The notes beneath the pieces are model-generated. The model was not told the origin of the DNA, searched no databases, and was given only the letters and a program-made list of their open reading frames with translations. Source: Sessilibacter corallicola (GTDB lineage Bacteria; Pseudomonadota; Gammaproteobacteria; Pseudomonadales; Cellvibrionaceae). Taken from it: DNA of 64,000 nt. Each line of letters opens with the position of its first letter. Position 1 is the first letter of the stretch. The position numbers and the translations under genes are program-made. The DNA lies in the NCBI RefSeq assembly GCF_021290925.1, contig NZ_JAJSLX010000001.1, positions 1,302,001 through 1,366,000 on the forward strand, in the 5' to 3' direction. Shown here in pieces: positions 3,154 through 14,921 of this stretch.

Positions 3154-3891
3154 ATGAAAATACTGCTCCTAATTTTAGCCATAACGCTATTAACCACCGT
3201 TAATACACAGGCAAACAACTCAGTCAATATTGCTGACGATTTCATGATGAAAATAAATCTGGATAATTTTAGAGTTGTAAGATTTCCACTAGCCCATAGA
3301 AATTTCATTTTTCATTCAATTGACAACCCTGCGTGTATAGCATCAACATTCAGCGCAGAAGACCCAATACCTACAACGGAGCTAGAAACTTTCTTTCCAA
3401 GATTAGACGGAGCTAACGGGGTACTTTTTAAAGATTGCGACACCAACGATATAACTCAACGCTTTACCTACGCGAATAAAAAAATAAAAAATTATTTGGG
3501 GCAATGCCTTACAGAAGTAGACTGGCCTTCATCTTTGAGTGTAACAGCCTGCGACAGAGCGAATGGCAGAATTCTAGACAGATCAATTCGTTACAGAGAA
3601 TCCTTATTGTTTTCTTCTTGCGATGGTTCTGGATCACAAGAATGGGACTTAGATACGTCATCGGGAAATAGTATTTCGTTTCATAAAGGCAACAGATGCC
3701 CAACCTTCACCGGAGAATCGCTAGCTCTAATGACTACTTGTGGAAGTTTCGGCACTAGAAATATAGTAGAAGATAGCTTTTTTGCTGGTGTTGAGAGTTG
3801 CTCTCTTCGAGGCCAAACCCATTTTATTGAGAACCCAGAAGGCGGCCAAGTTATCCTTGAACGTATCATTCCTATCGTTATTCCACTCTAA
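3154..3891 (+). CDS. Secreted Cys-rich protein with ricin-type (beta-trefoil-like) repeats, function unknown
   Basis: 245 residues with an obvious N-terminal signal peptide (MKILLLILAITLLTTVNTQA, then NNS), so exported. The mature part has eight cysteines. The middle contains segments like those of ricin-B lectin repeats: 'QCLTEVDWPSSLSVTACD', then 'LLFSSCDGSGSQEWDL' with a Q-x-W motif, then 'GNRCPTF'. An earlier 'CDTNDITQRFTY' resembles a degenerate copy. A carbohydrate-binding beta-trefoil is inferred, not proven, and no catalytic domain is visible. No strong Shine-Dalgarno precedes ATG 3154. Its stop codon overlaps the end of the convergent pspF gene. It may be a lineage-specific gene. Confidence 0.7.
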   Translation: MKILLLILAITLLTTVNTQANNSVNIADDFMMKINLDNFRVVRFPLAHRNFIFHSIDNPACIASTFSAEDPIPTTELETFFPRLDGANGVLFKDCDTNDITQRFTYANKKIKNYLGQCLTEVDWPSSLSVTACDRANGRILDRSIRYRESLLFSSCDGSGSQEWDLDTSSGNSISFHKGNRCPTFTGESLALMTTCGSFGTRNIVEDSFFAGVESCSLRGQTHFIENPEGGQVILERIIPIVIPL

Positions 3892-4943
3892 TTAAACTTA
3901 CGCCAAAGCACGCGAAATTGATCGTAGCTTAATCCCAAAATACTTGCTGCTCGGCCTTGATGATGATTAGCTAGGTCCATAGCAGCGAGTATTTGCTCTT
4001 TCTCCCAAGCTTCTCGCCGCTCTTTAAAGCCTTTCAAAGACAATTCATCAACAGCAGATGGCGTTACTCTTTCGATATTTTTATTGTTTATTGATGCGGA
4101 TTCCAACGGACTAATTTCTGACGCATGATGAACATCGGAATTAATCGTAGTATCAGACCAAGGAATTTCGAACGGATCTAACACCACCTCTTGAATCGGA
4201 TCGGTGGGATTTTTACAACGAAATAAAGACCGCTCTACAGAGTTCTTCAGCTCACGAATATTTCCAGGCCAAGCATATTCCAACAATTCATTTTCGACAG
4301 TTTCGGAAAATCCTGGAAAATAATCCCAATTTAAATTGCGCACAAAACTCACGGCAAAATGTTCCGCCAGCAACAGTATGTCGTCACCACGCTGTCGCAA
4401 CGGTGGCACATGAATAACATCAAACGCTAAGCGATCGAGTAAATCCAATCGAAATTCGCCAGCTTCGGCCATTCTTTTTAGATTTCCGTGGGTTGCACCA
4501 ATCACTCTCGCTTGTGTGTGCAATGTTTTTTGGCCGCCGATACGCTCGAATTCTCCGTATTCCAAAACACGAAGTATTTTTTCTTGTACACGCAAAGAAA
4601 GCGTGGCGATCTCATCCAAAAACAACGTACCTTCGCCAGCGCGCTCAAAAAAGCCTTGCTGAGCTTTTGTCGCCCCAGTAAATGAGCCCGCCTCATGACC
4701 AAACAGAGTCGATTCAACCAAACTCTCTGAAAGCGCGGCGCAATTCACCTTTATAAAAGGCTCTTCCCATCGAGGAGAGAGGAAATGGGTTCTATGTGCA
4801 ATCAATTCCTTACCCGACCCCCGTTCACCTAGAATCAACACCGGTCGATCTAACTGAGCCAAGCGAGATGCATGATCAAGCGCATCCAAGAAAAGCGGGC
4901 TCTGGCCCAGTGCCTTTTGCTGGCCCTGGTCATAATTGGCCAT
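3888..4943 (-). CDS. pspF: PspF, sigma-54-dependent activator of the phage shock operon
   Basis: Enhancer-binding AAA+ ATPase without a receiver domain, as in PspF; it activates sigma-54 RNA polymerase at psp promoters and is held inactive by PspA. With ATG at 4943 (AGGTGG Shine-Dalgarno 5 nt upstream, better than the GTG at 4952) it has ~351 residues. Walker A is GERGSGKE (about residues 39-46), Walker B region '[11 protein letters not shown]', and the arginine-finger/sensor region 'FRLDLLDRLAFDVIHVPPLRQR' is followed by 'AWPGNIRELKN'. The C-terminal helix-turn-helix is 'GRAASILGLSYDQFRVLWRK'. The sigma-54-contacting loop reads GSFTGA (about residues 86-91) where nearly all family members have GAFTGA. 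Divergent from pspA; the last 4 bp overlap the convergent secreted-protein gene. Confidence 0.95.
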   Translation of the reverse strand: MANYDQGQQKALGQSPLFLDALDHASRLAQLDRPVLILGERGSGKELIAHRTHFLSPRWEEPFIKVNCAALSESLVESTLFGHEAGSFTGATKAQQGFFERAGEGTLFLDEIATLSLRVQEKILRVLEYGEFERIGGQKTLHTQARVIGATHGNLKRMAEAGEFRLDLLDRLAFDVIHVPPLRQRGDDILLLAEHFAVSFVRNLNWDYFPGFSETVENELLEYAWPGNIRELKNSVERSLFRCKNPTDPIQEVVLDPFEIPWSDTTINSDVHHASEISPLESASINNKNIERVTPSAVDELSLKGFKERREAWEKEQILAAMDLANHHQGRAASILGLSYDQFRVLWRKFN

Positions 4944-5057
4944 ATAAACCACCTTTTGGTGAAAACTTTAGTAAATTTAACCAAAAACAAGTTCAAAAGA
5001 CCAGCCTAGCATCTTGAATATCGATTTATTCCTTTAAAAACAACGAGTTAAAAACCT

Positions 5058-5073
5058 TGGCACAATCTCAGCT
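5058..5073 (+). promoter_or_regulatory. Sigma-54 promoter of pspABC
   Basis: TGGCAC-AATCT-CAGCT matches the sigma-54 consensus TGGCAC-N5-TTGCA/T at the -24 GG (5059-5060) and the -12 GC (5071-5072), with exactly the required 10 bp between them. It sits between divergent pspF and pspA, about 60 bp before the pspA start. PspF is the expected activator. Confidence 0.88.
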
Positions 5074-5130
5074 ATGTACACTGCACACAACAAAGATATT
5101 TCAGTAAGACGTATAAGTCAGGAGATAAAC

Positions 5131-5805
5131 GTGGGTATTTTTTCAAGATTTAGCGACATTGTTCAGTCCAACATCAACAGCATGTTAGATCGTGCTGAAG
5201 ACCCGGAAAAAATGATCCGAATGATGATTTCGGAAATGGAAGAAACACTGATTGAAGTCAGAAGCGCGAGCGCTCGCATTATTGCCGACAAAAAAACCGC
5301 TCAGCGACGTTTGGACAACATGGAAAAAGACGCCGCTGAGTGGGAGCGAAAAGCAAAACTTGCACTGTCTAAAAACAGAGAAGATCTTGCCCGTGCTGCC
5401 CTGGCAGAAAAACAAGCCATTCTCGAAGAAATTGAGTTGATTAATGATGAACTCAAAAATCTCGAAGAACACTTAGAAAAGTTGGACGTAGAAATTTCTC
5501 AATTGCAAACCAAGCTCGATGATGCCAAAGCAAAAGAGAAAACCATGAAATTGCGCCAGCAAACCACCAGCGCACGCATGAAAACCAAGCGTCAAAACGA
5601 ACGCTCAAATGTTGAAGATGCTTTCTCTAAATTTGAAAAATTCGAACAACGTTTGGATAAGTACGAAAGCGAACTGGAAGCAATGGATCTTGGCAAAGGT
5701 AAATCAGGCAACTTAAACCAGCAATTTGCCGATCTTGAAAATGACGACAAACTCAACGCCGAGATTGAGCGTCTGAAAAAGGACATCAACACCAACAATA
5801 ATTAA
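5131..5805 (+). CDS. pspA: PspA, phage shock protein A (IM30/ESCRT-III-like)
   Basis: Peripheral inner-membrane protein that stabilises damaged membranes and inhibits PspF. The GTG at 5131 is chosen. It gives the standard N-terminus (M)GIFSRFSDIVQSNINSML, has AGGAG at 5120-5124, and lies downstream of the predicted transcription start. An ATG at 5074 would lie inside the promoter. The ~224 residues are almost entirely coiled-coil, including 'AEDPEKMIRMMISEMEETLIEVR' (the conserved helix) and long charged heptads. First gene of pspA-pspB-pspC. Transcription is expected to depend on sigma-54 and PspF. Confidence 0.96.
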   Translation: MGIFSRFSDIVQSNINSMLDRAEDPEKMIRMMISEMEETLIEVRSASARIIADKKTAQRRLDNMEKDAAEWERKAKLALSKNREDLARAALAEKQAILEEIELINDELKNLEEHLEKLDVEISQLQTKLDDAKAKEKTMKLRQQTTSARMKTKRQNERSNVEDAFSKFEKFEQRLDKYESELEAMDLGKGKSGNLNQQFADLENDDKLNAEIERLKKDINTNNN

Positions 5806-5828
5806 TTACTCAGGAGCTCTAAGAGCCA

Positions 5829-6080
5829 ATGTCATTTTCAACATTTTTAATTGCACCGACGATTATCTTTGTCGCGTTCGTCGCTCCATTATGGTTGATA
5901 TTGCACTACCGAAGTAAAAAGCGCGAAGAAACCGGTTTAAGCGAGCACGAACGCCAACAAATGGAAGATTTATTGGTGAAACTCGACAAAATGACCGATC
6001 GAGTTGAAACCCTGGAAAAGATTTTAGATGAACGTCACGGAAGCTGGCGCGACAAATTCAAAGAGGAGCAATACAAATAA
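5829..6080 (+). CDS. pspB: PspB, phage shock protein B
   Basis: 83-residue inner-membrane protein. One N-terminal transmembrane helix (FLIAPTIIFVAFVAPLWLILHY) is followed by a cytoplasmic amphipathic/coiled-coil part with 'SEHERQQMEDLLVKLDKMTDRVETLEKIL', the typical PspB C-terminus. With PspC it senses membrane stress and draws PspA away from PspF. An AGGAG Shine-Dalgarno (within 'caggagctct') precedes it; its stop overlaps the pspC start (TAATG), which points to translational coupling. Confidence 0.95.
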   Translation: MSFSTFLIAPTIIFVAFVAPLWLILHYRSKKREETGLSEHERQQMEDLLVKLDKMTDRVETLEKILDERHGSWRDKFKEEQYK

Positions 6081-6550
6081 TGAGTCATTACTCAAAACAT
6101 AAATATGGCTTCAATTACGACCGCTGGAAACATCGCAAAAATACCGGATACAACCGCAACCTTTACCGCAACAAACGCGACGGAAAAATATTTGGCGTCT
6201 GCGCCGGACTTGCCGATCACTTGAATTTAGATCACTGGGTTGTTCGCGTCCTTTTTATCGGTTCATTTTTTATTGTCGGACCTTTTACTTTCTGGGCATA
6301 CATTGCCGGTGCGCTTCTACTGTCGAAGCGCCCAAAGGAATGGAAACCGGAATACGAATACGATGAAGAGCGTGGTCAGTATCGGGAAAAAACCATCTTC
6401 AAACACTCCAAACCGGCCCCACAACGTTTGCGAGTCGCCCGAGAAAAAATGGATGCGACCTTAAAACGAATTGAAAATATGGAGCGGTACGTAACCTCCT
6501 CTCGTTACGATTTAGACCGCCAGTTTGCCGATATGGAACGCGGCAAGTAA
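6080..6550 (+). CDS. pspC: PspC, phage shock protein C
   Basis: 156-residue PspC-domain protein. The family core is clear: 'LYRNKRDGKIFGVCAGLADHLNLDHWVVRVLFIGSFF' followed by a transmembrane helix and 'LLLSKRP'. The C-terminal tail from about residue 95 is charged and ends in a short coiled coil ('MDATLKRIENMERYVTSSRYDLDRQFADM') as in other gammaproteobacterial PspC. It acts with PspB as membrane sensor and relieves PspA inhibition of PspF. The start overlaps the pspB stop by 1 nt. Confidence 0.95.
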   Translation: MSHYSKHKYGFNYDRWKHRKNTGYNRNLYRNKRDGKIFGVCAGLADHLNLDHWVVRVLFIGSFFIVGPFTFWAYIAGALLLSKRPKEWKPEYEYDEERGQYREKTIFKHSKPAPQRLRVAREKMDATLKRIENMERYVTSSRYDLDRQFADMERGK

Positions 6551-9105: not shown

Positions 9106-12100
9106 ATGAATCAGTTTTTAGATCACACACAGCCGACAGACTCATCAGCAACGCTGGAAGACCTTTACAGTAGCGGAAAATTTTCAGCGTTTTTAAACGC
9201 CTTCAACGCCCAATACCCGCACACCAATCAGTGCGATGACCTAGGTTTAATCAATCTCGTGATTCGCGCCAAAAGCCTGCTGGGATTAACCCGAGAAGCC
9301 AAAGCACTCATGTGGCGATTTTGGCGAAAACACAACCAGCCACAAGAATTGATCGAATTGTATTTATCGGTACTCAAGAACCAAGGCAGTCATTGGCAGG
9401 GTTTGAAAGAGGCAAAACGCCTTTGCGAAAAAATAGAAAATCCCAAAACACTTTCTAGAATTTACAGCTACCAATGTGAAGTCTTATCGCTATTTCGTGA
9501 TTTTAAAGGCGCTGAGGAAGCACTAAAAACCGCAAAAACACTCACTGACGACAACTGGAATGACGTAACACAGGCGTATCTCGCGCTGGACAATGATGCC
9601 CCTGATGAAGCCTTCAATATTGTTGAACGCGTTTTATCGTCAGATTCAACAAATTATGCTGCCATCCAGCTTAAAGCTCATTTGCACCATCTAAACGGCG
9701 ACGTCGATTCGGCAGCAGCTATGTTGGCACCGAGTTTAGATCCCAACAACAAAGACGCTATCGAGTCTGTCTATTTAGCCGTTAAGCAGGCGTATTATTT
9801 GATTGAACTTGAACAATATCAAAACGCTCATCAAATGGTGGAACTGGCAAAATCTTGGCTGCCAAACCCTCCGGCTTATTGGACCCGTTGGATCAATCAA
9901 ACTACGGCAGACATTCTCTGTGCCGAGCAAAAATACGATGACGCACTCGAATATTTAGAACCCACCGATCTGTACACAAAATCTGTTGCCGACCGTATTA
10001 AACGCGCAGAGACCCACTTAGACAATCGCGATCACCACCAAAAAAAATTATTGGACGTTCCTTTCGTGCGCCAAAATTTTTATACCTGTGCGCCTGCGAG
10101 CTTAACCTCGGTATCCCGTTACTGGGGCACAGAGGTGTCTCAAGAACAGGTAATAGAAGAAATTTGCTATCGCGGCACACATCAAGTCGACGAAAGGCAC
10201 TGGGCGATAAAACAGGGCTGGATAGTTAAAGAATTTGAATTACAGTTTAATAGCGCCAAACAGTTATTGGACAACAATATTCCGATTTTACTGACCACCG
10301 TAGATGCGCAAATGGGGCATCTGCAAGTCTTGGTCGGATACGATCAATCCAAAGGAACCTATTTTGTTCGCGACCCGTCCTACCCGCGCTTACAAGAACT
10401 GTTAATCGAGGCCGCAGAGACCTACTACGCAGCCAGCGGCCCCCGCTGCATGATTATTTTACCGCGACACCAACAGGCCTTACTCAACGAAATAGAGCTA
10501 CCGGCAGCCGCGCTTTACGATGCCCACTTTGAGTTGAAATCCTCACTTGAGAATGAAGACCGAACCAAAGCATTTCAGGCATTACGGCAACTTATCGATG
10601 TTGATCAAAACCACCGAATTACATTAATTGGTCAAAAAGATATTGCCTACTACGATCAAGATTATCGCAAAATTGATCAAACTCTCGATGAGCTGCGCAA
10701 ACGCTATCCCGACGACACCAATTTAATTATCGAAAAAACCTACAATTTAAAAAATATTGGTACCAGCAAACAAGTACTAACCTACTTAGAACCCTTTGTT
10801 GAAGCACCGCACTGTCATCATCTCCTGAAAAACTTGTATGTTGAAGAGCTTCGACACGACGGTAGAAATTTATCGTTATCATTAAAACTCTCTAATAAAC
10901 TGCTTAAGCACTACAGCTTGAACGACCGAGTTTTAATCACTCAGGCCAATCTTCTGTGGGATCAAAAAAATCATCAGGAATCTCGTGAGCTATACCGCTT
11001 GGCGTCTTGCTTGGAAGATAAAAACGAACAGTACGCGCACCAATATCATTTAGCCTCTCGATTTGTTAAACAAGAAAAAGTAGCTCTGGATTTTCTAGAA
11101 GATCGTTTCAAACGATTTTCCAAAAAATCCAGCGGTCCGGGACTGTCTTACTACAACGCCGCTAAGTATTCGATGGGTGAAGAGCAAGCGCTAAACATAC
11201 TCGAACAAACAATAACGTTACATCCTAACGACGGTCATCTACACATCTATACGGCGCAAGAGTACTTACTTTCAGGCAAACTCGAAAGAAGTCGAGAACT
11301 GCTAACACTCGCAGAGCCCATCGCCAATAAAATCGAATTTCTACAAATACAAGGGTTTTACTACGAGACCAATAACGAATTCGAAAAAGCGCTTCAGTGT
11401 TTAGAAAAGGTTATTAGCTATCAACCGCTCAACCAATCGGCCACACAATCAGTTATTCGGATTCTTGAACAATTGGGAAGAGAGAAACAAGCCAAAGAAT
11501 TAGTGGCAAATCTGTTGGCTAAATTTCCGAGCAATTACAATCTATTAACCAGGAAATACCGATTAATTCCGGAATCGGATGTCAGCGAAAGAATGACACA
11601 ACTGGAACACATTATTGATCTACACCCTTCAGAGTATTGGCCTTACCTTGAATACTCTGTCTTGCTCGGCGAGCAAAATCGGCTTGACGATGCTCTGAAT
11701 ATCGCCAAAAAAATGACAAACGTGCGCCCTGATATTGCCAGTGGATTCACTCAATCAGGAAAAATGGAATTCCAACTCGGCAATACAGATTCTGCTAAAC
11801 ACTGGTTTGAGCAAGCAATAAAAATATCGTGCGACGAAACAGAAGCGTACGATCTTCTGTTGCAATGTGCCGATAGCCAAGCGCTCGAAAAACAATACAT
11901 CAACTTTATTAAATCAGAATTAATCAATCAAACCAGTGAAGGCGAAGGTATTCTTGGTTATCAGCAATTTGCCAGCCCCTATGAAACAACCGAACAACTG
12001 GAAGAATTTTTAACTTATGCCTGTCGTGAACGACCCGATCTCTGGCAGAGCTGGATTGCTAAATCTAGAAATCAGAGAAAGCTCGGCATGCTCGATGAGG

Positions 12101-14151
12101 CCATCGACACGCTAACCCAAGCGCTTGAGCGACACGGCTTAAAACCGATCATGTACTTAGAACTCGGCAAAACCTACCGAGTACAAGGTAATTTAGCTCA
12201 AGCGGAGCAAGAAACTCGTCGCGCTCTAGAAATTAATCCTGATTGGTCGTCAAGTATTAATGAGCTGTCCGAAATCTTAAATCTGCAGGGTAAAACCGAT
12301 GAAGCCATTCAAGCATTAGAGAAATATCTACGAATTAATCCGCAAGAGGTTATTTCACACTCCTATTTAGCCAGCCTTTACTGGTCACAGGAAAAGCACG
12401 AGTTAGCCATTGGTTCGCTTTCGAAAGCACTGGAGCTCTACCCCGAGTACCGCTGGGGCTGGAATGAAATAGCAAGTTGGAACACAGAACTGAATCAACA
12501 CCAAAATACCGTTGAGTTAATTCAAGCAGCCCGAACCAAACATCCCCACTCCGTTCCTTTAGTTTTGGTCGAAGCTTCTGTGTACGGTACTTCGGAAGAA
12601 GCCACTAACGTTCTAAAGGAGTTTTCTAAAGATCATCCTAATGCATTAAATGTGTTTACCGAATACTGTTATTTACTGTGTGATTTAAACGAACCAGAAA
12701 AAGCGAAGCATACGTTAGAGCAATCCCACTGGAATAAAAGCTCTGTCACAGACATTTCAACGCTTCGAGCTTATATAGAAGTGGAGCTGGGTTACATTGA
12801 CCGGGGAATCGATATTATCGACTCAGTCGTGACTGCCCAGCCGGGATTTTCATCAGGTTGGCGATACCTAACGGCTTGGTATGCAATTCATAAACGAGAT
12901 GTGGCAGCGACCAAGCACAGTCTCAACCATTTTGTGAAACTAAACAGCTCAAACGCCAGTGAAATATATTTCGGCGCGCTCAAATTACAAGAAGTAGCCC
13001 CGCACGATCCGTTAATCAAAACACTGATTGAAAAGTGCTTACGGCTTGACCCAACAAACGAAAGCTACCTAGCCACCTATTTCAATCATTTACAGTCTTT
13101 ACCCGCAAAAGAAAATAACCTAAGTAAAGAGCAATTGATTTCATTGTTTGATAATGCGCTTAAATTAACAGCACCCATCAAAAAGACAATAACCTATACC
13201 CTCTATTCACTGATCACGGAATGTTTCAAAGGCGACAATATTGAACGTATTATCGCTTTGTGGTCAGAATTATTAACCACTACTGGCGTTCAATACTATC
13301 AGTTGGAAAAGGCCTGGTTAGCCCTAGAAGAACATGGCGTAGCCCATAGCGCTACTGAGACTATAGAAAAACTTTGGCTAACAAACGGCAATATCAATGT
13401 CTACGCGGGCGAATTTCTCGCAAAAGGAAAAACAAAACAATTAACATTAAAACAGTTGGATCAATGGATGATTTCAACCGATTTTACTGATGCATTTTCC
13501 GACGGCGTTATTGAAGAATACATTCGTCACACCATTAGAATTAAATCCCCACTCAACAAAAAAGCCTTTAACAAGTTATCAGAAAAGATTGCTTCGAATA
13601 CCATGAATTGGGGGCTTATAGGTTATTACTACGCAGATCAAAGTGACTGGAAACGAGCTGGCCAATGGTTTGAAGACTACAAGTCTAAGTCTGGCGTGCA
13701 AGCTTGGCAATTGTATTTTTACGGCATTACGAAACTGCAATTGGGTAATTGGCGACACGGTATAGAAATTATGACGGATGCCTTTGCACTTCCCAGCGAT
13801 TCGTATCGCGATGAAATTGTAACTTGGATGACGCTGAACGGTTTATTGGAAAATCAAGAAGTGGATTTGGAGGAATTCAATCGTATTAACGTTAAAGACT
13901 TATCGTCCTACAGCAACTACGCTCATCACTTAGCGCAAGCGTTAATATTAGTTGAAAGCTCCAGCTTAGAGGCCGAACACAACAACGTGAGTACTATCCT
14001 AAGACATTGCCAACGTTTGTATCAACCGATTGTGGGTCAGCTAAGCGTTACTATGGCAAAAGCAAAATCTCAACAAGCCTTAAAACGAAAAATTGAATCA
14101 AAACACCTCAAAAAATTGTATTGGCAATGGAAGCTGTCGAATTATTTCTGA
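9106..14151 (+). CDS. Giant TPR protein with an embedded C39-type cysteine peptidase domain
   Basis: 1681 residues, by far the largest protein here. Residues 1-310 and 450-1681 are helical repeats of TPR type, with segments such as 'PIMYLELGKTYRVQGNLAQAEQETRRALEINPDW' and 'AIGSLSKALELYPEYRWGWNEIA'. Inserted at about 315-445 is a papain-like C39 domain: 'LDVPFVRQNFYTCAPASL' with Cys328 and a nearby Gln323, 'MGHLQVLVGYD' with His405, and 'YFVRDPS' with Asp423. The spacing (77 and 18 residues) fits the C39 triad (in ComA Cys17/His96/Asp112), so the active site looks intact. There is no signal peptide or transmembrane segment, so it should be cytoplasmic. C39 domains usually cleave after double-glycine leaders and are fused to ABC exporters; no exporter or leader peptide is seen here. 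Substrate unknown. Confidence 0.88.
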   Translation: MNQFLDHTQPTDSSATLEDLYSSGKFSAFLNAFNAQYPHTNQCDDLGLINLVIRAKSLLGLTREAKALMWRFWRKHNQPQELIELYLSVLKNQGSHWQGLKEAKRLCEKIENPKTLSRIYSYQCEVLSLFRDFKGAEEALKTAKTLTDDNWNDVTQAYLALDNDAPDEAFNIVERVLSSDSTNYAAIQLKAHLHHLNGDVDSAAAMLAPSLDPNNKDAIESVYLAVKQAYYLIELEQYQNAHQMVELAKSWLPNPPAYWTRWINQTTADILCAEQKYDDALEYLEPTDLYTKSVADRIKRAETHLDNRDHHQKKLLDVPFVRQNFYTCAPASLTSVSRYWGTEVSQEQVIEEICYRGTHQVDERHWAIKQGWIVKEFELQFNSAKQLLDNNIPILLTTVDAQMGHLQVLVGYDQSKGTYFVRDPSYPRLQELLIEAAETYYAASGPRCMIILPRHQQALLNEIELPAAALYDAHFELKSSLENEDRTKAFQALRQLIDVDQNHRITLIGQKDIAYYDQDYRKIDQTLDELRKRYPDDTNLIIEKTYNLKNIGTSKQVLTYLEPFVEAPHCHHLLKNLYVEELRHDGRNLSLSLKLSNKLLKHYSLNDRVLITQANLLWDQKNHQESRELYRLASCLEDKNEQYAHQYHLASRFVKQEKVALDFLEDRFKRFSKKSSGPGLSYYNAAKYSMGEEQALNILEQTITLHPNDGHLHIYTAQEYLLSGKLERSRELLTLAEPIANKIEFLQIQGFYYETNNEFEKALQCLEKVISYQPLNQSATQSVIRILEQLGREKQAKELVANLLAKFPSNYNLLTRKYRLIPESDVSERMTQLEHIIDLHPSEYWPYLEYSVLLGEQNRLDDALNIAKKMTNVRPDIASGFTQSGKMEFQLGNTDSAKHWFEQAIKISCDETEAYDLLLQCADSQALEKQYINFIKSELINQTSEGEGILGYQQFASPYETTEQLEEFLTYACRERPDLWQSWIAKSRNQRKLGMLDEAIDTLTQALERHGLKPIMYLELGKTYRVQGNLAQAEQETRRALEINPDWSSSINELSEILNLQGKTDEAIQALEKYLRINPQEVISHSYLASLYWSQEKHELAIGSLSKALELYPEYRWGWNEIASWNTELNQHQNTVELIQAARTKHPHSVPLVLVEASVYGTSEEATNVLKEFSKDHPNALNVFTEYCYLLCDLNEPEKAKHTLEQSHWNKSSVTDISTLRAYIEVELGYIDRGIDIIDSVVTAQPGFSSGWRYLTAWYAIHKRDVAATKHSLNHFVKLNSSNASEIYFGALKLQEVAPHDPLIKTLIEKCLRLDPTNESYLATYFNHLQSLPAKENNLSKEQLISLFDNALKLTAPIKKTITYTLYSLITECFKGDNIERIIALWSELLTTTGVQYYQLEKAWLALEEHGVAHSATETIEKLWLTNGNINVYAGEFLAKGKTKQLTLKQLDQWMISTDFTDAFSDGVIEEYIRHTIRIKSPLNKKAFNKLSEKIASNTMNWGLIGYYYADQSDWKRAGQWFEDYKSKSGVQAWQLYFYGITKLQLGNWRHGIEIMTDAFALPSDSYRDEIVTWMTLNGLLENQEVDLEEFNRINVKDLSSYSNYAHHLAQALILVESSSLEAEHNNVSTILRHCQRLYQPIVGQLSVTMAKAKSQQALKRKIESKHLKKLYWQWKLSNYF

Positions 14152-14222: not shown

Positions 14223-14771
14223 TTATTTAGCCATTGTAATCTGCGCGCCATCCAATTTTAGATCAGACAGTTTAGCAAGAAACGCTTCAATATTTTTCAT
14301 GCCCGAGCCTTCATTGGCTAATCGTAACCGTTTGGTTGCAACAAGCGCTTCACCCACTTTTGTTACGTGTGGTGCTTCAATAACTTCATCAAACACGACA
14401 GCGTTCGTTGCAGTATCTGTGAGTGTGTATTTGATGTGCGTAGTCACTTTCATATTCAAACCCACTAAAGGCTGCGCTACTTTCACCATGTTTACAGCCA
14501 GTTGGTATTTACCGTTATCTGACAACAACCCTTGAGCTTTTAAACTTTCTTTTAAAGCACCTTCGAAAGCGATATCGCTGATCTCCGATGTCCAAGCAGG
14601 ATTGGTTTTTTCACCGCCGAGAACGCCTGTAACCTCAACATTTTCCTTCAACGCTTCTGGGTAGGATTTACCCTCACCGTGATAAACCATGTTTTCCATT
14701 TTTGCGCCAGTTGCACAACCGGTGATGTACACCGCTAAAAGAGCGATAAATCCAAACTTTATTAATTTCAT
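14223..14771 (-). CDS. Predicted lipoprotein, function unknown
   Basis: ATG at 14771 gives a lipoprotein signal MKLIKFGFIALLAVYITGC with the lipobox ITGC (Cys19); an in-frame upstream codon at 14822 would add 17 polar residues and spoil it. The mature ~164 residues contain 'YHGEGKSYPEALKENVEVTGVLGGEKTNPAWTSEISDIAFEGALKESLKAQGLL', a segment 'YQLAVNMVKVAQPLVGLNMKVTTHIKYTLTD' and 'VFDEVIEAPHVTKVGEALVATKRLRLANEG'. This alternation of beta strands and an early helix resembles other small outer-membrane lipoproteins that assemble on secretin-like or transporter complexes, but I cannot name a family. Convergent with the TPR gene; monocistronic by position. Confidence 0.75.
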   Translation of the reverse strand: MKLIKFGFIALLAVYITGCATGAKMENMVYHGEGKSYPEALKENVEVTGVLGGEKTNPAWTSEISDIAFEGALKESLKAQGLLSDNGKYQLAVNMVKVAQPLVGLNMKVTTHIKYTLTDTATNAVVFDEVIEAPHVTKVGEALVATKRLRLANEGSGMKNIEAFLAKLSDLKLDGAQITMAK

Positions 14772-14921
14772 TTTTCGTCCTAGTGATTTTATAAATAGAT
14801 TACGACATTCGTAACAATGCACCGCACCTGAATTTTACACGCACAGTCAAATTGAGTACAAACAGAATTGAATAAGAATAAATTTAGAGTGCGCACACCC
14901 TGAGCTATTTAACTAGCAGTA

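What the first reader, a model, noticed from the sequence alone, without database searches (positions are those of the whole stretch)
9106..14151. Giant TPR protein carrying an intact-looking C39-type cysteine peptidase without an exporter
A C39 fold with Cys328, His405 and Asp423 in correct spacing is inserted in ~1500 residues of TPR repeats. C39 domains normally sit on ABC exporters and trim double-glycine leaders; here none is seen, nor a leader peptide, and the protein should be cytoplasmic. It may be a scaffolded protease for unknown substrates, possibly held or activated by the TPR solenoid. The family of TPR-C39 proteins is hardly described functionally.
Basis: partly seen in the sequence, partly recalled or inferred. 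Interest (0 to 1): 0.62.

Follow-up and report, generated by a model that had tools for sequence, protein, structure and literature searches.

The report
Giant repeat protein with built-in protease
The gene encodes a roughly 1,700-residue helical-repeat scaffold with a complete cysteine-protease domain built into it, one member of an apparently undescribed family that keeps the same layout and the same catalytic residues across at least six bacterial phyla; it is probably a protease that carries its own substrate-binding arm, but what it cuts is unknown.

Summary
The ORF at 9106-14151 (1,681 aa) has about 8 TPR hairpins, a C39-like domain (residues about 313-455), and then a long TPR solenoid. 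AlphaFold2 gives a confident papain-like C39 fold (pLDDT 91.7) whose best solved matches are PCAT1, ComA and a C39-like peptidase. Cys328, His405, Asp423 and oxyanion Gln323 are kept in the family: 77 aligned giants, with Asp to Glu in two, plus an independently drawn set.

The gene belongs to a family of single-copy, mostly 1,640-1,760-aa proteins in Pseudomonadota, Planctomycetota, Acidobacteriota, Verrucomicrobiota, Myxococcota and Cyanobacteriota. It is patchy (4 of 58 relatives), under purifying selection, and absent from the plasmid, phage and viral collections searched. There is no exporter, leader peptide, signal peptide or conserved neighbour. Its closest named family, the PA2778 lipoproteins (which pair with PA2779), differs in size, location and partner.

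New here: almost all giants end in a strongly basic, Trp-rich tail (mean net charge +6.4 over 45 residues, against -1.0 internally), and a few end in a hydrophobic, TM-like segment.

Best reading (inferred): a cytoplasmic-side, possibly membrane-attached protease whose TPR solenoid selects substrates. Substrate unknown. I found no paper describing the family.

The parts
9106..14151 (+). Giant TPR-C39 protein, 1681 aa (P0001)
9139..10014 (+). N-terminal TPR block, residues 12-303, about 8 helical hairpins
   Evidence: AlphaFold2 secondary structure; Pfam TPR_19 and ANAPC3 matches
10042..10470 (+). C39_2 peptidase domain, residues about 313-455
   Evidence: Pfam PF13529 60.1 bits; structure pLDDT 91.7; Foldseek to PCAT1, ComA and 3erv
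10072..10074 (+). Gln323 codon, predicted oxyanion-hole residue
   Evidence: 77/77 in the family; kept in every independent row with the position aligned
10087..10089 (+). Cys328 codon, predicted nucleophile
   Evidence: 77/77; kept in every independent row with the position aligned
10318..10320 (+). His405 codon, predicted catalytic base
   Evidence: 77/77, (set chosen partly by a motif holding this His); confirmed on the HMM-drawn set, and
10372..10374 (+). Asp423 codon, third triad member
   Evidence: 75/77 Asp, 2/77 Glu
10507..14010 (+). Long C-terminal TPR solenoid; 43 helices predicted between residues 468 and 1193
   Evidence: pLDDT 91.8, pTM 0.87 for residues 1-1199; residues beyond 1199 not modelled, Pfam and alignment only
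14014..14148 (+). Basic, Trp-containing C-terminal tail, last 45 residues, net charge +9
   Evidence: family-wide feature, repeated on a second set

Best explanation
It is a self-contained site-specific protease with a built-in substrate adaptor. The TPR solenoid binds particular proteins or protein complexes on the cytoplasmic side and delivers a segment to the C39_2 active site, where Cys328/His405/Asp423 cleave it by ordinary papain-type chemistry. The basic Trp-rich tail probably attaches the protein to the inner face of the membrane, or to another anionic partner. Shown by computation: fold, triad conservation, fixed architecture, purifying selection, absence of an exporter, leader or signal peptide and of a conserved neighbour, and the tail. 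Inferred: that it is catalytic, that TPRs select the substrate, and the location.
For: Papain-like C39 model at pLDDT 91.7 matching PCAT1, ComA and 3erv; the family profile aligns its Cys, His and Asp with those of ComA. Triad and oxyanion Gln kept over six phyla and in an independent HMM-drawn set, as expected of an enzyme rather than a binding module. C39 is the best-conserved stretch (mean column identity about 0.56-0.67 over residues 301-450, against about 0.26-0.53 elsewhere). C39 and TPR are one unit: a TPR-only query finds exactly the same four giant-bearing genomes of 58 as the C39 query. Confident single model of TPR plus C39 (pTM 0.87). The solenoid resembles adaptor and scaffold TPR proteins, including LbcA, which activates and works with the CtpA protease (PMC6050968, PMC8764530). 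Tail: mean net charge +6.4 in the last 45 residues against -1.0 internally, Trp 2.6 against 1.2, repeated in 13 giants of a second set.
Against: No substrate, partner or phenotype is known. No gene neighbour is conserved between genera. The relation of the active site to the solenoid was not measured (coordinates not available). A basic Trp-rich tail could as well bind nucleic acid or a protein. Papain-like folds also carry other chemistries (phytochelatin synthase is among the Foldseek matches).
Confidence: 0.55

Rival explanations
1. The papain-like domain does other acyl-transfer chemistry (deamidation, transpeptidation, isopeptide cleavage or ligation of a peptide) on a TPR-bound partner, not simple proteolysis.
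For: Foldseek also matches phytochelatin synthase Alr0975, the deubiquitinase Josephin-2 and an endoisopeptidase. The family has its own invariant motif between Cys and His (I-C-Y-D-G-T...E-R-x-W), not seen in the two PA2778-type proteins compared.
Against: The best-ranked structural matches are double-glycine proteases and another C39-like peptidase, and the triad is the C39 one.
Confidence: 0.15
2. The domain is a non-cleaving binding module or chaperone, as some C39-like domains of RTX exporters are.
For: Degenerate C39-like domains exist (3zua, 'A C39-like domain', and HlyB entries are among the matches).
Against: Cys and oxyanion Gln are invariant in 77 giants and in every independent row with those positions aligned. 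Loss of the Cys would be expected in at least some members of a binding family.
Confidence: 0.1
3. It is a bacteriocin or RiPP leader peptidase that lost its exporter and trims double-glycine leaders in the cytoplasm.
For: Closest solved C39 peptidases cut after double glycine.
Against: No exporter, precursor or modification gene recurs beside the gene in about 80 loci; Myxococcota, Planctomycetota and Pseudomonadota copies share no neighbour; exporter-type PF03412 is below its cut-off.
Confidence: 0.07
4. It is a conflict or defence protease in which a TPR sensor releases a C39 effector, like TPR-CHAT in spirit.
For: Patchy distribution (4 of 58 relatives; 10 of 148 in Pseudomonadaceae); fast divergence: 35% identity to the syntenic same-genus gene while the flanking genes are 61-82%.
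Against: No defence-model match beyond TPR cross-hits, no conserved partner gene, no plasmid, phage or viral copies, one giant per genome in 20 of 20, conserved length.
Confidence: 0.08

Closest known systems
PA2778 family cysteine peptidase (NF033920) with PA2779 family partner (NF033919)
   Same: C39_2-like peptidase followed by TPR-like helices; the giant scores 82.6 bits over residues 315-556
   Different: Below the 150-bit cut-off. PA2778 proteins are about 340 aa with a lipoprotein-like N-terminus and a PA2779 gene beside them in three of the four loci read. The six giant carriers checked here have no PA2779. In Pseudomonas both occur, at separate places.
Peptidase-containing ABC exporters (PCAT1, ComA; Pfam PF03412)
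   Same: Fold and catalytic triad
   Different: No transporter domains, PF03412 below cut-off, no leader peptide gene nearby
FapD, stand-alone C39 peptidase of the Pseudomonas Fap amyloid system
   Same: C39 peptidase outside an exporter; its catalytic Cys is needed for FapC secretion (PMC6173800)
   Different: Part of the fap operon, no giant TPR solenoid described; not compared by sequence here
LbcA-CtpA (TPR lipoprotein plus protease)
   Same: A TPR spiral that activates and works with a protease (PMC8764530, PMC6050968); the LbcA chain is a Foldseek match to the solenoid
   Different: Two proteins in the cell envelope, unrelated protease family; here adaptor and protease are one chain without an export signal

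Membership tests
Peptidase_C39_2 (PF13529) | Profile score above the curated cut-off | tested here: met
   60.1 bits against 24; all 61 members scanned match at E <= 0.01
Peptidase_C39_2 (PF13529) | Papain-like fold | tested here: met
   Model pLDDT 91.7; Foldseek 3erv TMq 0.74, PCAT1 TMq 0.61-0.64
Peptidase_C39_2 (PF13529) | Cys-His-Asp catalytic residues | tested here: met
Peptidase_C39_2 (PF13529) | Peptidase activity | not testable with these tools
   needs biochemistry
Exporter-type Peptidase_C39 (PF03412, PCAT/ComA) | Score above the cut-off | tested here: not met
   14.4 bits (whole protein) and 19.2 bits (domain) against 22
Exporter-type Peptidase_C39 (PF03412, PCAT/ComA) | Fused to or beside an ABC exporter, with a double-glycine leader substrate | tested here: not met
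   No fused transporter; none among the flanking genes classified; no recurrent exporter family in homolog loci
PA2778 family (NF033920) | Score above the equivalog cut-off of 150 | tested here: not met
   82.6 bits
PA2778 family (NF033920) | PA2779 family partner in the genome | tested here: not met
   None in G000, G001, G026, G027, G254 or G196
PrsT / PEP-CTERM TPR protein (TIGR02917) | Score above the cut-off | tested here: not met
   174 against 312.2 bits, TPR cross-match only

The most novel reading that the evidence does not exclude
A pan-phylum, undescribed family of single-chain adaptor-proteases: an intracellular C39_2 peptidase locked at a fixed place in a TPR solenoid of some 40 hairpins and attached to the inner membrane face by a basic Trp-rich tail, processing a conserved, still unidentified cellular substrate. 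It would be a regulated intracellular proteolysis machine without ATPase or separate adaptor.
Probability: 0.3. Interest if true: 0.75.

Novelty: new variant of a known kind. Interest (0 to 1): 0.52.

Why it matters
C39 peptidases are known mainly as trimming domains of exporters. A single-copy protein of nearly constant size, with an invariant catalytic centre, spread over six phyla and apparently without any literature, points to a real but unstudied proteolytic function, and to adaptor and protease being joined in one chain. The active-site residue, the tail and the laboratory-strain carriers (Myxococcus, several Pseudomonas) make it directly testable.

Tried and rejected
1. Dedicated partner gene: neighbour clustering of 80 loci found no family recurring between genera; the recurrent ones are synteny within one genus or clade, common superfamilies, or antisense ORFs. 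2. Mobile or viral origin: no hit in plasmids, phages or viral contigs. 3. Defence system: PADLOC hits (PrimPol, PDC-M71B) lie in TPR regions only and were rejected as TPR cross-matches. 4. Exporter nearby: none seen; the only PF03412 gene in the genome is a separate 163-aa C39 gene on another contig. 5. Giants without the C39 domain: a TPR-only query found none in 58 relatives. 6. Worry that His405 is 'conserved' only because the genome scan used a motif holding it: checked on sets drawn without it; conservation stands. 7. A first genome-contig scan with the single protein found nothing; the alignment was needed. 8. Literature searches found no description; the library lacks most subscription journals.

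Full report
What is there. The + strand ORF 9106-14151 encodes 1,681 residues. Pfam finds Peptidase_C39_2 (PF13529, 60.1 bits, residues 316-424) between TPR matches on both sides; the exporter-type PF03412 stays below its cut-off. AlphaFold2 on a 61-row alignment gives the C39 region a mean pLDDT of 91.7. Foldseek places it with PCAT1, ComA, the C39-like 3erv and staphopain, and a profile search aligns the Cys, His and Asp of the family with those of ComA. Residues 1-1199 modelled as one chain give pLDDT 91.8 and pTM 0.87: about 8 helical hairpins, the C39 domain, then 43 more helices up to residue 1193. Residues 1200-1681 were not modelled.

It is a family. Two searches of relatives gave five more full-length giants. 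A scan of genome contigs with their alignment found 108 loci, of which 80 were fetched. Complete members are mostly 1,640-1,760 aa, a few up to 2,000, and 77 were aligned. They come from Pseudomonadota, Planctomycetota, Acidobacteriota, Verrucomicrobiota, Myxococcota and Cyanobacteriota, and the tree groups most by phylum with some exceptions (FastTree, long branches, MAG titles of varying reliability). Twenty of 20 carrier genomes hold one giant each; one planctomycete in a later draw holds two. Presence is patchy: 4 of 58 relatives; 10 of 148 in a draw of the Pseudomonadaceae (some of them the seeds); about 15 of 149 genomes in the planctomycete phylum draw by the strong matches.

Catalytic residues. 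Gln323 and Cys328 are identical in 77 of 77, and Asp423 is Asp in 75 and Glu in 2. His405 is also 77 of 77, but the scan used a motif that contains it, so that figure alone is circular. Sets drawn by other means keep it too, including divergent planctomycete giants whose flanking sequence has changed and about 720-aa cousins; two partial rows there lack half of the positions. Close pairs show dN/dS of 0.07-0.30 over the protein, and mostly lower in the C39 part.

Unit and context. A TPR-only query finds the same four genomes as the C39 query and no TPR giant without C39. Neighbours are not conserved between genera. In the window the flanking genes are ordinary: an M20 dipeptidase, an unnamed lipoprotein-like ORF, FabI, acetate kinase, PHA synthase and a phage-shock cluster. 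The same-genus locus L046 keeps the gene order, with flanking proteins 61-82% identical while the giant is only 35% identical and its C39 part 54%. The gene therefore diverges quickly but under constraint.

The tail. The last 45 residues of 77 giants carry a mean net charge of +6.4 and 2.6 Trp, against -1.0 and 1.2 in internal windows of the same proteins, and +0.7 and 0.65 in C-termini of neighbouring ORFs; 70 of 77 have net +3 or more. A second set of 13 giants, two or three of which repeat earlier loci, gives +6.8 and 2.2, while two 720-aa cousins have acidic ends. Several members (L061, L112, and more weakly L088; L083 and L068 slightly upstream) have a hydrophobic, TM-like segment near the C-terminus. 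The p-values ignore relatedness. I read this as a membrane or anionic-partner tether; it is not proven.

How it probably works. No signal peptide or N-terminal hydrophobic stretch was seen in the giants (hydropathy of the first 60 residues; no dedicated signal-peptide predictor was run), so the cytoplasmic side is most likely. TPR solenoids commonly recruit partners. Foldseek relatives of this one are scaffolds (IFT-A, Ski3, Ctr9, OGT, APC/C) and LbcA of the CtpA-LbcA protease complex (PMC6050968, PMC8764530, PMC11021448). The simplest model is an adaptor and protease in one chain. Catalysis, substrate and location remain inferences.

Relation to known families. The nearest named family is PA2778 (NF033920): 82.6 bits against a cut-off of 150. 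Its members are about 340-aa proteins with a lipoprotein-like start, and three of the four loci read have a PA2779 gene beside them. Giant carriers outside Pseudomonas that were checked lack PA2779. It is therefore a relative, not a member. Literature searches found no description; FapD is a documented C39 peptidase outside an exporter (PMC6173800).

Noticed in passing
L169:4618-5109 (-), G000 contig C2, same genome as the window: A second, small stand-alone C39 peptidase gene (163 aa, PF03412 109.8 bits) without an ABC exporter domain; neighbours within 5 kb include a winged-helix regulator-like ORF and a small membrane protein.
   Followed up: partly
L011:4686-6150, L043:4324-5732, L044:4650-6042: PA2778-type lipoprotein-like C39 peptidases sit beside PA2779 family proteins that share a conserved 'LPAG' stretch just before a predicted TM segment: a candidate cleavage site worth testing.
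   Followed up: no
L167:733-2901, L168:1418-3580: Planctomycete cousins of about 720 aa with the same C39 triad but acidic C-terminal ends, unlike the basic tails of the giants.
   Followed up: partly
window 9106-14151 against L046:5377-10476: In a syntenic block of the same genus the flanking proteins are 61-82% identical while the giant is only 35% identical: unusually fast divergence despite purifying selection in close pairs of other clades.
   Followed up: partly
window 14223-14822 (-): Short lipoprotein-like ORF next to the giant without a NCBIfam match; at this place the same-genus locus L046 has an unrelated-looking 158-aa secreted ORF instead.
   Followed up: no
L105 (7686-10352 and the next ORF downstream), L119: Giants split into two ORFs, either a frameshift in a MAG or a genuine break; left as they are.
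   Followed up: no
window 3888-6550: Phage-shock cluster (PspF divergent from PspA and PspC) close to the giant; synteny is kept in L046 but not in other genera.
   Followed up: partly
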